From assembly GCA_030153385.1 (NCBI GenBank), contig JASKJN010000004.1, positions 1 to 46,975 on the forward strand: a stretch of 46,975 nt of DNA. The letters are read 5' to 3'. The notes beneath the pieces were generated by a model. That model saw nothing but the letters and a program-made list of their open reading frames with translations. It was not told the origin of the DNA and searched no databases. The translations under genes were made by a program, and so were the position numbers. Origin of the DNA: Archaeoglobaceae archaeon. GTDB taxonomy: Archaea > Halobacteriota > Archaeoglobi > Archaeoglobales > Archaeoglobaceae. This document shows positions 7,903-32,403 of the stretch, piece by piece; position 1 is the stretch's first letter, and every line of letters starts with the position of its first letter.

Positions 7903-8277
7903 TAGTTTTACTTGCAGAGTCAATTTCCGAGTTTGATTTTGTTGATTGGGTGCTGATAGTTGATTTAAGTTGATTTCAAAATGTCGGTTTTGTTGATTTT
8001 GGCGATTGTTTCTGATGAGTTCTCAAGAAATCCAATTTTCCCCCTAAACCCTATGTTCTACATGGAACAAGTTGGAACATATTCTGAATCAACCCTTAAA
8101 AAGCTCGAAGTCGAAAAAGAAAGCAGCAGAAAGCATAATTTACGTATCAGAATTTCTTCAGAAAAACTATATATTTTTAAAAGAAAATTTCAAAAATCGC
8201 TTTTCCGAAACAATCGATAAGTTATTGAGCTTTTTGAGGACTGAGGTACCGATATAAATAAAAATACTCAGCCTCAG
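7903..8277. other. intergenic stretch without a convincing gene; repeated GTTGATT
   Basis: I see no supported gene here. GTTGATT occurs four times within 60 bases (7941, 7959, 7969 and 7992), with unequal spacing. A TTG-started frame, 8072-8257, would give a basic 61-residue helix-rich peptide, but it lacks a ribosome-binding site and any recognisable motif. The stretch ends at the tRNA gene. Confidence 0.4.
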
Positions 8278-8350
8278 TGGGCTCGGCCGGATTCGAACCG
8301 GCGATCTCCGCCGTGTAAGGGCGGTGTCATAACCCCTAGACCACGAGCCC
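8278..8350 (-). tRNA. tRNA-Val (anticodon UAC)
   Basis: The minus strand folds as a complete 73-base tRNA. The acceptor stem GGGCTCG pairs with CGAGCCC, and the D-arm contains TGGTCTAGGGG. The anticodon stem CCGCC/GGCGG encloses the loop CTTACAC with anticodon TAC. The T-loop region is GGTTCGAATCC. The discriminator base is A and no CCA is encoded. I see no intron. It marks the boundary between the accessory stretch to its left and the housekeeping genes to its right. Confidence 0.95.
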
Positions 8351-28260: not shown

Positions 28261-28261
28261 T

Positions 28262-28573
28262 GGTGGGCGCGCCTCGGGTCGATCCGCTGTTTCTGCAGTG
28301 CTGAGCAATGCACTCCTCCTCCCCGCACCCCCAGAAGCGCCGGTCGTTCGGGGTAGGCTTGCTCCCTTCCGGGCCTCAGCCGGTGCCCCCGACAAATACC
28401 GCGAACCTCTCCTCCAAGAAGCCCGCGGTAACCGCCGACCCTCCAGGACGAGGACTCTACGGAAACGCATTGCCCAGCAAACTGCAGACATGCGGACCTT
28501 CCCTCGGCTTCGGCTCCCGCATATCGACGGTTTCGGGTTACAGGGGACGCCGAGTCCCCCAGCCTAGCCCACC
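28262..28573 (-). ncRNA. ffs: 7S signal recognition particle RNA
   Basis: A 312-base GC-rich RNA on the minus strand. The 5' end GGTGGGC pairs with the 3' end GCCCACC, and CTCGG with CCGAG, forming the closing helix 5. The conserved domain IV hairpin AGGCCCGGAAGGGAGCA binds SRP54. The 5' part GTCCCCTGTAACCCGAAACC belongs to the Alu-type domain. Length and layout are those of archaeal 7S RNA. A TATA box sits 25 bases upstream. End points are set by the terminal pairing and are probably good to a few bases. Open frames across this stretch are spurious. Confidence 0.93.
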
Positions 28574-28594
28574 AACTAATAATAATCCGAGAAG

Positions 28595-29281: not shown

Positions 29282-30706
29282 ATGAAATCTCTGATCATCT
29301 TTGCGTTGCTAATGCTCATACTCCCAAGTTTTGCTCTCGAAGTTAAGGTGGGTGTGTACGATAATCCCCCGCTGGTTAGCAGACAGGATTCAAAATATGA
29401 GGGCTTATATATAGATCTGATCGAACACATCGCGGAAAAGGAGGGCTGGAAAATAATCTACGTCTACGATACCTTCCCAAATCTGCTCAGAAAACTTGAG
29501 AATGGAGAGATCGATCTGATGACTGCGATAGCTTATTCTGAGGAAAGAGAAAAGCTTTACAAATTCACAAATGAAACGATCCTTTCAAACTGGGGATTGA
29601 TCGTTTCGAAGGATAGATACAACTCAATTCTGGAAATGAAAGGTTTGAGGGTTGCTGGACTTCTGGGTGATGTTTACACGGAGAGTTTCAAGAAACTTTC
29701 AAATGCATTTGAGCTCAACTGCGAGATCTTGGAATTGGAAGGAGAATACAAAGACGTGCTTAAAGCTGTAAGAGATGGCTTGGCAGATGCTGGAATTGTT
29801 TCGAGGATCTACGGCTCGCTTTATGCAAAAGATTACGGTCTGGAAATTACAAACGTTATATTCTCTCCCATAAGCCTGCGATTCGCATCAAAGAACAAGG
29901 AATTACTCTCAATCATCGACAGACACGTCTCTGAAATGAAGGCTGACAGCGGTTCGATTTACTACCAATCTTTGGAAAAGTGGTTTGGTGTAAAGTCTGA
30001 AATAATTCCCTCATGGATCTATCAGCTTGCTTTAGCTGGAGCACTCGTCATCTGTCTTCTGATATTCGGCAACATCCTGCTTGGTAGAGAAGTCAGAAGA
30101 AGGAGCAAAAAGATTGAAGAAGCCCTCAATCAGTATGAATATCTTTGGGAGAACGCAAATGACATTCTTTACATCCATGACCTGAATGGGGATATTTTGA
30201 AGATCAACAGGAAAGCTTTAGAGCTTTTTGGTTATGAGTCGAGCTTAGGTGTTAAATTTTGGGACGTAGTTGATCCCAAATACCGGAAAATCGCAGAAGA
30301 GAAATTAAAGGAGATTTTAGAAAGTAAGAAATTTGTAGGACCGTATGAAATTCTCTGCAGAGCTAAAGATGGAAGAGAAATCTGGCTTGAGATCATTTCT
30401 CATCCTATAATCAAAGATGGAGAAGTTGTTGCAATTCACGGAATTGCAAGAGATATTACTGAGAGAAAGAAGCTGCTGGAACAGCTTGAAAAGAACATAC
30501 TGTTGATAGCGCATCTTGTGGATAAAATTAGAAATCCCTTAACAGTTGCAAGGGTTTACTGCGAGCTTAGTGACGAGTTTAAAGGTGACACGAATGAGAG
30601 AGTGATAAACTGTATAGATACAGTAATCGACCTCCTTTCTGACCTTGAAAAAGCTTGGATCGAATCTGAGAGGCTCAGAGATCTACTTTTTGGTTGGGAT
30701 AAGTGA
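29282..30706 (+). CDS. membrane receptor: solute-binding domain + PAS, no kinase
   Basis: A 474-residue sensor-like protein. A signal peptide (1-18) is followed by a periplasmic-binding domain of the SBP_bac_3 type (20-240, with VYDNPPLVSR and GEIDLMTAIAYSEER). Next come one transmembrane segment (about 247-268), a short coil, and a PAS domain (284-395, ending IHGIARDITERK). The C-terminal 75 residues look like a histidine kinase dimerisation helix, but the H-box reads LVDKIRNPLTVA. D414 replaces the phospho-accepting His of H-x-IRNPL, and no ATPase domain follows. The gene ends within a 32-base convergent overlap, so truncation is possible. It may act as a non-kinase partner. Confidence 0.8.
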   Translation: MKSLIIFALLMLILPSFALEVKVGVYDNPPLVSRQDSKYEGLYIDLIEHIAEKEGWKIIYVYDTFPNLLRKLENGEIDLMTAIAYSEEREKLYKFTNETILSNWGLIVSKDRYNSILEMKGLRVAGLLGDVYTESFKKLSNAFELNCEILELEGEYKDVLKAVRDGLADAGIVSRIYGSLYAKDYGLEITNVIFSPISLRFASKNKELLSIIDRHVSEMKADSGSIYYQSLEKWFGVKSEIIPSWIYQLALAGALVICLLIFGNILLGREVRRRSKKIEEALNQYEYLWENANDILYIHDLNGDILKINRKALELFGYESSLGVKFWDVVDPKYRKIAEEKLKEILESKKFVGPYEILCRAKDGREIWLEIISHPIIKDGEVVAIHGIARDITERKKLLEQLEKNILLIAHLVDKIRNPLTVARVYCELSDEFKGDTNERVINCIDTVIDLLSDLEKAWIESERLRDLLFGWDK

Positions 30707-31583
30707 CTTTTATAAATTTTACTGGACTTCTAACCTCCCGGACCAATCCCCTTTTCCTCAGGAATCTGAGATAGGAAAGAGTTTCAAGTATTGCAAGGTA
30801 TTTGTCAAATGGACTCAGGCTCTCGTATTTACCCTGGCTCCAGTCAATCTCATTCGCAATGCTCTCCACGCTCATTGGCTCATCGCCGAGAATTTCGAGA
30901 ACCTCAGCGGTTCTTTGCAAATAATGCTCTTTTAAATATTCAATTCTGCCTGAAACGTCGTAAATTCTCCTTTCGTGAGCGGGATATATCACCTCGATTT
31001 CCATGCTTTTCAGCTTTTCAAGCGCCAAAAGGTAATCTTCAAGCCCGTATTGATAGTTTAAGTATAAGCCCAAATTCGGAGTCGTGTCGCTCAGAATTGC
31101 GTCGCCAGAAAAAAGCGCATTGTCGACGAAGAAGCAAGTATGGCCTGCGGTGTGTCCGGGGACATGGATGGCTTTAAGACGTCCAATGCCTCCCTGTATC
31201 TCGTGAACTTTTGCATGAAGTTTCAGCTTTAGAAAAGATATGAGCTCAAGCGTCCTTACGTATTCCTCTGGCACTCCATATATTTCACAGATTTCGAACT
31301 GTTGATTTAGAAAGAATTGAGGGCTTTCATACAGGTATATCAGCTCCCTTTCGATCGGGTGCATATAGGCATCGATTTCCGAAAAGAATAGATAGCCGAC
31401 GTGATCGACGTGATGATGAGTAACGAGTGCTATTTTTGGTCCAAATTCTGAAATTTTATCAGCATGCTCCTTAGAGCAGAATCCAGCATCGATCATAACT
31501 TCTGAGTCCAAAAAGTAAACGTAAACGAAATCAGGTTTTTCAAATGGGACATCAAGTCTCAGAGTTTCGATCTCCACCTTCAA
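30675..31583 (-). CDS. metallo-beta-lactamase-fold hydrolase, glyoxalase II/LACTB2-like
   Basis: A 302-residue protein. The N-terminal MBL domain has VTHHHVDHVG, VPGHTAGHTC, SGDAIL and PAHERRIYD, a full two-metal site. A C-terminal helical, winged-helix-like segment (about 225-290) follows, as in LACTB2-type nucleases and thioesterases. Hydrolysis of an RNA or thioester is possible; the sequence does not decide. The start is TTG 31583, with GTG 31577 as the alternative. It overlaps the end of the receptor gene. Confidence 0.8.
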   Translation of the reverse strand: MKVEIETLRLDVPFEKPDFVYVYFLDSEVMIDAGFCSKEHADKISEFGPKIALVTHHHVDHVGYLFFSEIDAYMHPIERELIYLYESPQFFLNQQFEICEIYGVPEEYVRTLELISFLKLKLHAKVHEIQGGIGRLKAIHVPGHTAGHTCFFVDNALFSGDAILSDTTPNLGLYLNYQYGLEDYLLALEKLKSMEIEVIYPAHERRIYDVSGRIEYLKEHYLQRTAEVLEILGDEPMSVESIANEIDWSQGKYESLSPFDKYLAILETLSYLRFLRKRGLVREVRSPVKFIKVTYPNQKVDL

Positions 31584-31618
31584 AAATCAGTAGAGCGGTT
31601 TTTAAATTTAGCAGAAAG

Positions 31619-31628
31619 TTTTTTAATT
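31619..31628 (+). promoter_or_regulatory. TATA box for the H/ACA RNA and methyltransferase
   Basis: GAAAG followed by TTTTTTAATT is centred about 24 bases upstream of the first base of the guide RNA's lower stem (31647). Confidence 0.5.
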
Positions 31629-31646
31629 TTCCTGAAAACTAATAAT

Positions 31647-31707
31647 GCTCCACCTCTCACACCCGGGTGAAAAGCATGATCTCGGGTCGGTTGGTGGAGC
31701 AACAACA
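31647..31707 (+). ncRNA. candidate archaeal H/ACA pseudouridylation guide RNA
   Basis: One hairpin with all H/ACA parts. The lower stem GCTCCACC (31647-31654) pairs perfectly with GGTGGAGC (31693-31700). An internal pocket is formed by TCTCACA (31655-31661) and TCGGTT (31687-31692). The upper stem CCCGGG (31662-31667) pairs with CTCGGG (31681-31686) through one G-U. The kink-loop TGAAAAGCATGAT contains two UGA elements for L7Ae. An ACA box is at 31702-31704, exactly 15 bases below the upper stem, within the 14-16 base rule. The pocket predicts a target 5'-AACCGA-UN-UGUGAGA or close to it. It lies 9 bases before the ATG of an rRNA methyltransferase gene, probably on the same transcript. Confidence 0.72.
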
Positions 31708-31716
31708 AGTGGTCTT

Positions 31717-32403
31717 ATGAGGATATGCGGAGCTAATAGTGTTCTTGAGGCCTTGAAGTCGGGAAAAGTTTTGAAGATCTACTACAGCTCAGACAGTCCA
31801 AAGATCAGAGAAATACTTGAGCGCGCTAAAAAATTGAAGATCCCTGTATACAGAAAAAGGATATCCGAGAGTATCTGTGCAGAAGTCAGTCCGATAAGTT
31901 ATTCAAAACTCGAAGACTTGGCTAAAAAGGCAATTATGGATAACAGCTTCATTTTAGTTCTCGACAATGTTAACGATCCCCAAAATCTTGGTGCTTGCAT
32001 AAGAAGTGCAGAATTCTTTGGCTGTGCGGGCATTTTGATCAGAAAAAGAAGGTCCGCTCAGGTTAGCGAAGCGGTTGTCAGAGCGTCGATGGGGGCTGTG
32101 TTTCACATCAAGATTGCAAGTGAGGAAAATCTGGCCAATGCAGTGAGAAAACTAAAGGAACTCGGCTTATATGTATTGGGAGCGGATCTAGACGGAAAGG
32201 ATCTTAGGCAGATGTCAATGAAGCCACCTTTAGCTCTCGTTGTTGGTGGAGAAGACAAGGGCATTTCCAAGGGATTGAAAAGACTTTGTGACGAAGTCGT
32301 GAGAATCCCTGGATGTGGGAAAGTGGGGTCTCTAAATCTATCTGTAGCAAGTGCTATTTTAATGTATGAAATATACAAATCATCGAATTTAAGTAATGTT
32401 TAA
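31717..32403 (+). CDS. SpoU/TrmH-family RNA 2'-O-methyltransferase
   Basis: A 228-residue SPOUT methyltransferase resembling RlmB/TrmH. A short N-terminal RNA-binding part (CGANSVLEALKSGKV) precedes the knotted domain: NDPQNLGACIRSAEFFG (motif 1, with the catalytic Asn and Arg), LVVGGEDKGI (motif 2) and IPGCGKVGSLNLSVASAI (motif 3). It should methylate a ribose in rRNA or tRNA. ATG 31717 is the real start; an upstream ATG at 31645 would run through the guide RNA and add residues unlike the family. Promoter and leader are shared with the H/ACA RNA. Confidence 0.88.
   Translation: MRICGANSVLEALKSGKVLKIYYSSDSPKIREILERAKKLKIPVYRKRISESICAEVSPISYSKLEDLAKKAIMDNSFILVLDNVNDPQNLGACIRSAEFFGCAGILIRKRRSAQVSEAVVRASMGAVFHIKIASEENLANAVRKLKELGLYVLGADLDGKDLRQMSMKPPLALVVGGEDKGISKGLKRLCDEVVRIPGCGKVGSLNLSVASAILMYEIYKSSNLSNV

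What the first reader, a model, noticed from the sequence alone, without database searches (positions are those of the whole stretch)
31647..31707. H/ACA guide RNA placed 9 bases ahead of an rRNA methyltransferase start
All structural rules are met: perfect 8-bp lower stem, two-sided pocket, kink-loop with paired UGA elements, and an ACA box 15 bases below the upper stem. The mRNA leader of one rRNA-modifying enzyme would thus carry a guide for another rRNA modification. The 5' guide strand fits GUGAGA of the conserved 23S stretch near the peptidyl transferase centre, but the 3' strand does not fit that stretch cleanly, so the target is open.
Basis: partly seen in the sequence, partly recalled or inferred. 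Interest (0 to 1): 0.65.

Follow-up and report, generated by a model that had tools for sequence, protein, structure and literature searches.

The report
Known archaeal rRNA-guide, new gene neighbour
This is a genuine small RNA that tells the cell where to convert one uridine of the large ribosomal RNA into pseudouridine; the same guide is already known from Archaeoglobus and Pyrococcus, and what is new is only that in four related species it sits directly in front of, and probably shares a transcript with, an rRNA-methyltransferase gene.

Summary
Window 31646-31704 (+) is a canonical single-hairpin archaeal H/ACA guide RNA. A covariance model built without the four genomes that share this arrangement finds it at E = 1e-17. 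Orthologues occur in 46 of 55 Archaeoglobaceae genomes, with eight pairs changed on both sides. It matches Rfam Pab91 full length (E = 1.6e-8 to 2.8e-8, below Rfam's curated cut-off). The A. fulgidus copy, in a genome of exactly 2,178,400 bp, is almost certainly Afu-46.

The target is not open. In this organism's own 23S both guide strands pair fully with GACCG-[UC]-GUGAGA, the only uridine in 16S+23S with at least 3+3 pairs: U2637, which is E. coli U2593 and A. fulgidus U2639, the published Af46 site.

The 12-nt spacing to an RlmB-like methyltransferase start is real, but occurs in only four genomes of one genus and looks like a rearrangement. The guide's conserved TATA box lies about 27 nt upstream of it, and no second promoter is visible, so both probably share one transcript. 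Cis-regulation is possible but untested. New member of a known kind; low to moderate interest.

The parts
31646..31704 (+). H/ACA guide RNA, Pab91/Afu-46 type (59 nt)
   Evidence: CM from 42 orthologues, 85.3 bits, E 1e-17; Rfam RF02795 Pab91, 46.1 bits, E 1.6e-8
31646..31654 (+). lower stem, 5' side (pairs with 31693-31701)
   Evidence: 9 pairs, 96% of cells paired over 42 distinct sequences, 4 pairs with changes on both sides
31655..31660 (+). 5' guide strand UCUCAC, pairs GUGAGA of 23S
   Evidence: 6 bp to own 23S
31661..31667 (+). upper (GA) stem, 5' side (pairs with 31681-31687)
   Evidence: 7 pairs, 98.6% of cells paired, 4 pairs with changes on both sides
31668..31680 (+). K-loop (UGA ... 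UGA), expected L7Ae site
   Evidence: sequence; conserved in the orthologues listed
31681..31687 (+). upper (GA) stem, 3' side
31688..31692 (+). 3' guide strand CGGUU, pairs GACCG of 23S
   Evidence: 5 bp incl. one G-U; same letters in 45 of 46 orthologues
31693..31701 (+). lower stem, 3' side
31702..31704 (+). ACA box, 14 nt from the upper stem
   Evidence: ACA at this place in every copy
31615..31626 (+). BRE/TATA-like promoter element AAAGTTTTTTAA, 31 to 20 nt upstream of the RNA
   Evidence: promoter profile trained on 42 other orthologues scores it 10.4, best in the 300 nt upstream; nothing comparable in the RNA or spacer
31709..31713 (+). GUGGU, possible Shine-Dalgarno element of the methyltransferase
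   Evidence: GUGGU/GUGAU in the same place in all four genomes, pairs with 16S 3' end AUCACC; energy alone not significant (13% of shuffles)
31717..32403 (+). SpoU-family methyltransferase gene, RlmB-like (228 aa)
   Evidence: PF00588 E 6e-41; TIGR00186 RlmB 209 bits, over cut-off 160
30675..31583 (-). divergent metallo-beta-lactamase-fold gene, kept next to the RNA in G008 as well

Best explanation
The element is the Archaeoglobaceae orthologue (Afu-46) of the Pab91-type H/ACA guide RNA. It is transcribed from its own TATA box with a predicted start at about 31646. It should fold into one hairpin with a K-loop, bind L7Ae, Cbf5, Nop10 and Gar1, and hold 23S rRNA in its pocket through GUGAGA (5' guide) and GACCG (3' guide). 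Cbf5 would then convert the uridine between them to pseudouridine (own 23S U2637, E. coli U2593, helix 93 beside the peptidyl transferase centre). In four species of this genus a rearrangement put the RlmB-like methyltransferase gene 12 nt after the ACA box, so that gene is now most likely expressed by read-through from the guide's promoter. The guide RNP is presumably released by trimming just after the ACA, leaving a short-leader mRNA with a GUGGU ribosome-binding element. Shown by computation: RNA structure, homology, target pairing, promoter position, lineage-restricted adjacency. Inferred: RNP assembly, modification in this organism, co-transcription and processing.
For: Independent CM hit, E 1e-17. 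Orthologues in 46 of 55 family genomes and in one genome of another family of the class. Covariation: 97.2% of cells paired, 8 pairs and 46 cells changed on both sides, beyond nearly all shuffles and all slid controls. Only one uridine in 16S+23S has at least 3+3 guide pairs, and it is fully matched 6+5; 21 of 1500 shuffled guides reach that score. The target is unchanged in every archaeal family 23S read. G040 (2,178,400 bp) carries the RNA, and with the only numbering offset at which all five published A. fulgidus sites are uridines, site 2639 is this uridine (Af46 to L2639 in PMC4652768). Rfam Pab91 matches full length with the same guide strands; Pab91 makes Psi2685 in the P. abyssi peptidyl transferase centre (PMC6138745). 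Cbf5, Nop10 and L7Ae are in the genome, with a weak Gar1 hit. TATA profile upstream of nearly all copies whatever the neighbour. Synteny: RNA+MBL gene without methyltransferase in G008; methyltransferase+GINS+L44e without the RNA in G005.
Against: No RNA-seq, pseudouridine mapping or binding data were available for this organism. The Rfam Pab91 score (46 bits) is below the curated cut-off of 71. The 5' guide strand is weaker in some genera (UCCCAC, GUCCAC), and the RNA is not found in genus g4 although the target uridine remains, so the modification is not essential across the family. The Gar1 hit is below its cut-off. The transcript start and read-through are inferred from sequence.
Confidence: 0.93

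Rival explanations
1. Cis-regulatory leader: besides guiding pseudouridylation, the H/ACA RNP (or L7Ae alone on the K-loop) stays on the unprocessed mRNA 5 nt upstream of the ribosome-binding element and blocks or tunes methyltransferase translation, so that guide assembly and enzyme synthesis are coupled.
For: 12-nt spacing and a GUGGU/GUGAU element conserved in four species; no other visible promoter. L7Ae does repress translation through a leader k-turn of its own gene in archaea (PMC5539422, PMC6298567).
Against: Adjacency in only 4 of 55 family genomes and explained by rearrangement. The RNA keeps nearly the same sequence where no gene follows. Guide RNAs next to or overlapping genes are common without known regulation (PMC7994747, PMC3491384). 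The hairpin is predicted stable without protein, unlike the L7Ae leader switch.
Confidence: 0.12
2. The stretch is coding: the methyltransferase starts at ATG 31645 and the hairpin is the DNA of a 24-residue N-terminal extension.
For: The frame is open through the RNA in all four genomes.
Against: G003 has no ATG there; homologues start at 31717. The same RNA sequence lies at unrelated loci without this gene in 42 genomes. Changes are compensatory in the stems.
Confidence: 0.01
3. Chance hairpin or an ordinary regulatory stem-loop or terminator that only looks like H/ACA.
For: Single-sequence folding alone is only moderately unusual (z -3.0).
Against: E 1e-17 from an independent model, covariation, match to a known H/ACA family, two-sided rRNA target.
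Confidence: 0.01
4. The guide is genuine but its main target is something other than 23S U2637, for example an mRNA or a tRNA.
For: Weaker 5' strand pairing in some genera; extra-ribosomal targets have been proposed for archaeal H/ACA RNAs (PMC4652768). tRNA and mRNA targets were not scanned here.
Against: Best and only qualifying rRNA site; the site agrees with the published Af46 position, and Pab91 carries the same guide strands.
Confidence: 0.03

Closest known systems
Afu-46 (Af46) H/ACA sRNA of Archaeoglobus fulgidus, guiding 23S Psi2639 (Tang et al. 2002, as cited in PMC4652768)
   Same: Orthologous RNA in the genome of matching size (G040, 2,178,400 bp); same target uridine; same hairpin, K-loop and ACA spacing.
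   Different: In A. fulgidus it stands between unrelated genes with its own promoter and is not next to the methyltransferase. The published Afu-46 sequence itself was not held, so identity rests on target, homology and genome size.
Pab91 (Rfam RF02795), Pyrococcus abyssi, guiding 23S Psi2685
   Same: Full-length model match with the same 5' guide UCUCAC and 3' guide CGGU; target in the peptidyl transferase centre.
   Different: Score 46.1, below Rfam's cut-off of 71; different stem letters; the loop is two bases longer.
Archaeal box C/D sRNA genes that overlap or share transcripts with neighbouring genes (PMC7994747, PMC3491384)
   Same: A guide RNA gene fused to a coding gene or tRNA; some N. 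equitans C/D RNAs overlap rRNA-methyltransferase genes.
   Different: Those are C/D guides, most without promoters of their own. Here it is an H/ACA guide with its own promoter, which the protein gene seems to use.
L7Ae mRNA leader k-turn (PMC5539422, PMC6298567)
   Same: A K-turn-type L7Ae site in a leader close to a Shine-Dalgarno element.
   Different: That one controls l7ae itself and folds only with protein; here the hairpin is a complete guide RNA and no regulation is shown.

Membership tests
Archaeal H/ACA guide RNA | Hairpin with lower stem, two-sided internal loop and upper stem | tested here: met
   9 bp + 6/5 nt loop + 7 bp, supported by covariation
Archaeal H/ACA guide RNA | K-turn or K-loop with G.A pairs | tested here: met
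   UGA/UGA at 31668-31670 and 31677-31679; conserved in orthologues
Archaeal H/ACA guide RNA | ACA (ANA) box 14-15 nt from the upper stem | tested here: met
   ACA 31702-31704, 14 nt (15 with the A-U pair open); rule from PMC4652768
Archaeal H/ACA guide RNA | Target with pairing on both sides of a U-N dinucleotide | tested here: met
   23S U2637, 6+5 bp, unique in 16S+23S
Archaeal H/ACA guide RNA | Core partner proteins Cbf5, Nop10 and L7Ae in the genome | tested here: met
   Cbf5 531 bits, Nop10 89 bits, L7Ae 180 bits, all over cut-offs
Archaeal H/ACA guide RNA | Fourth partner protein Gar1 in the genome | tested here: inconclusive
   one hit of 23.7 bits, E 4e-5, below the cut-off of 29.3
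Archaeal H/ACA guide RNA | Expressed as a small RNA, bound by the RNP, modifies the target | not testable with these tools
   no expression or modification data for this organism
Afu-46 / Pab91 guide family | Sequence and structure homology | tested here: met
   46 family genomes incl. A. fulgidus-sized G040; Rfam RF02795 E 1.6e-8 to 2.8e-8 full length, though below the gathering score
Afu-46 / Pab91 guide family | Same target uridine (A. fulgidus 23S 2639) | tested here: met
   only offset with all 5 published sites = U places 2639 at CCG[U]CGU
L7Ae-type leader riboregulator | Protein binding to the leader changes translation of the downstream gene | not testable with these tools
   no expression data
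L7Ae-type leader riboregulator | Element conserved in front of the regulated gene across relatives | tested here: not met
   of 19 methyltransferase loci examined in the family, 15 lack the RNA in front; adjacency only in 4 genomes

The most novel reading that the evidence does not exclude
A complete, working H/ACA guide RNA serves at the same time as the 5' leader of an rRNA-methyltransferase mRNA, and assembly of the guide RNP in cis represses or times translation of that enzyme, coupling two modifications of 23S domain V in a four-species lineage.
Probability: 0.1. Interest if true: 0.6.

Novelty: new member of a known kind. Interest (0 to 1): 0.27.

Why it matters
It extends the Afu-46/Pab91 guide family to Archaeoglobaceae genomes that Rfam's cut-off misses, and fixes its target. 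It also gives a clean case of a guide RNA gene changing partners (stand-alone, before tRNA-Lys or tRNA-Leu, before a methyltransferase) while keeping its own promoter. If the guide proves to act in cis on the methyltransferase, it would be a simple natural link between RNA-guided and protein-only rRNA modification.

Tried and rejected
Coding N-terminal extension from ATG 31645: rejected, because the RNA occurs at unrelated loci and G003 lacks that ATG.

Chance fold: rejected.

Guide-target covariation across the family: uninformative, because the target is identical in every archaeal 23S read while the 5' guide varies slightly.

Statistical support for the GUGGU ribosome-binding element from pairing energy alone: not significant (13% of shuffles as good); only its conservation supports it.

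The original papers by Tang 2002 and Muller 2008 were not held under the ids tried, so their sites are taken from PMC4652768. Search in genus g4 with a lax threshold found no copy.

Full report
What was checked. The window lies in a 1.40-Mb draft genome (G000). The genome belongs to the family of Archaeoglobus: relatives' records bearing the same RNA are titled Archaeoglobaceae, Archaeoglobus, Geoglobus and Ferroglobus. In the notation of Toffano-Nioche et al. (PMC4652768) it is a productive '10/5/9' H/ACA motif: a 10-layer upper stem (7 standard pairs closed by A-U, then U.U, G.A and A.G of the K-loop), a 5-nt 3' guide, a 9-bp lower stem, and 14 nt from the upper stem to the ACA.

More than chance. 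Model R1 was built from the four copies that stand before the methyltransferase. It found one strong copy in 46 of 55 family genomes. On the alignment of those 46 (42 distinct), 97.2% of cells pair, and eight pairs show changes on both sides (for example G-C to A-U in the lower stem, G-C to A-U and U-A in the upper stem). Every slid control falls to 28-51% paired. A second model from the 42 copies that are not before the methyltransferase found the window's copy at 85.3 bits, E = 1e-17, so the evidence does not depend on the copy itself. Beyond the family, the 295-genome phylum sample gave only one further genome, in another family of the same class.

Identity. Rfam has no match at its curated cut-offs, but a permissive search gives RF02795 Pab91 full length, 46.1 bits, E = 1.6e-8 to 2.8e-8, with the same guide strands. 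The copy in G040 also matches. G040 is a single contig of 2,178,400 bp; I recall this as the length of A. fulgidus VC-16. Published A. fulgidus sites are quoted as 2639 (Af46), 2601, 1970, 1364 and 2878. Among 35 numbering offsets only one makes all five uridines, and there 2639 is the uridine of CCG[U]CGU, the present target. The RNA is therefore taken as Afu-46. Pab91 guides Psi2685 in the peptidyl transferase centre of P. abyssi (PMC6138745); because it carries the same guide strands, I infer that this is the equivalent uridine.

Target. In the organism's own rRNAs the only uridine with at least three pairs on both sides is 23S U2637, GACCG[UC]GUGAGA, with 6 pairs to the 5' guide and 5 to the 3' guide; 21 of 1500 shuffled guides reach the same score somewhere. 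tRNAs and mRNAs were not scanned. The E. coli equivalent is U2593, by counting from the annotated 23S start of an E. coli record.

Neighbourhood. The downstream gene is an RlmB-like SpoU methyltransferase, starting at 31717 like its homologues. In only four genomes (G000, G003, G006, G007) does the RNA stand before it, each time with exactly 12 nt between ACA and ATG. G008 keeps the RNA beside the same divergent MBL-fold gene, but without the methyltransferase; G005 keeps methyltransferase, GINS, L44e and S27e together without the RNA. A rearrangement joining the two neighbourhoods is the simplest reading (inference). A TATA profile trained on the other 42 copies peaks about 27 nt upstream of the RNA and gives the best score in the four genomes at the same place, with nothing comparable in the RNA or the spacer. 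In G005 an AT-rich TATA-like stretch lies just before the methyltransferase start (read by eye). So in the four genomes the methyltransferase most likely uses the guide's promoter. The predicted transcript would start at the RNA's first base, and the spacer keeps GUGGU/GUGAU, complementary to the 16S 3' end.

How it most likely works. Transcription gives a guide followed by the methyltransferase. The K-loop binds L7Ae, the lower stem and ACA bind Cbf5, and the RNP modifies 23S U2637. The 3' end is presumably trimmed after the ACA, leaving an mRNA with a leader of about ten bases that still carries GUGGU. The protein partners are present, Gar1 only as a weak hit. Whether the RNP also controls translation in cis is open; L7Ae leader control is known for l7ae itself, but here the arrangement is lineage-specific and has ordinary parallels among C/D guides, including N. 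equitans C/D RNAs that overlap rRNA-methyltransferase genes.

Verdict. Observation confirmed; guide-RNA interpretation confirmed; target solved and already known; the mRNA-leader idea likely as a transcript arrangement but unproven as regulation. New member of a known kind.

Noticed in passing
L077:1423-1560, L056:1392-1559, L043:1384-1559 (all - strand): In G001, G009 and G005 of the same genus the guide RNA is followed on the same strand by a tRNA gene: tRNA-Lys(CTT) after 4 and 35 nt, tRNA-Leu(CAA) after 34 nt. These look like H/ACA-tRNA tandem transcripts in which RNase P could make the guide's 3' end.
   Followed up: partly
window 31646-31704; L049:1502-1559: Rfam RF02795 (Pab91) matches Archaeoglobaceae copies full length but far below its cut-off of 71 bits, so annotation at Rfam's cut-off would miss this guide RNA in the copies tested.
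   Followed up: yes
genus g4 (G012, G023, G047-G050): No copy of the RNA was found in any of six genomes of this genus, although the target uridine and its surroundings are unchanged in those read: apparent loss of the guide.
   Followed up: partly
window 31645-31716: ATG at 31645 gives an open frame through the guide RNA into the methyltransferase; automatic annotation may add a spurious 24-residue N-terminus (MLHLSHPGEK...).
   Followed up: yes
window 31717-32403: The RlmB-like methyltransferase is found at high similarity only within Archaeoglobaceae among the phylum relatives searched; it may have come from bacteria.
   Followed up: no
L107: Genome bin G008 carries a bacterial (E. coli-like) 23S rRNA, so that bin is contaminated.
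   Followed up: no
G026:C3:326032-326089 and G020:C37:21134-21193: Second, weak model matches (32.6 and 28.3 bits) that may be other H/ACA guide RNAs.
   Followed up: no
window 28261-28574 (-) and 8277-8350 (-): SRP RNA gene (225 bits) and tRNA-Val(TAC) in the same window.
   Followed up: no
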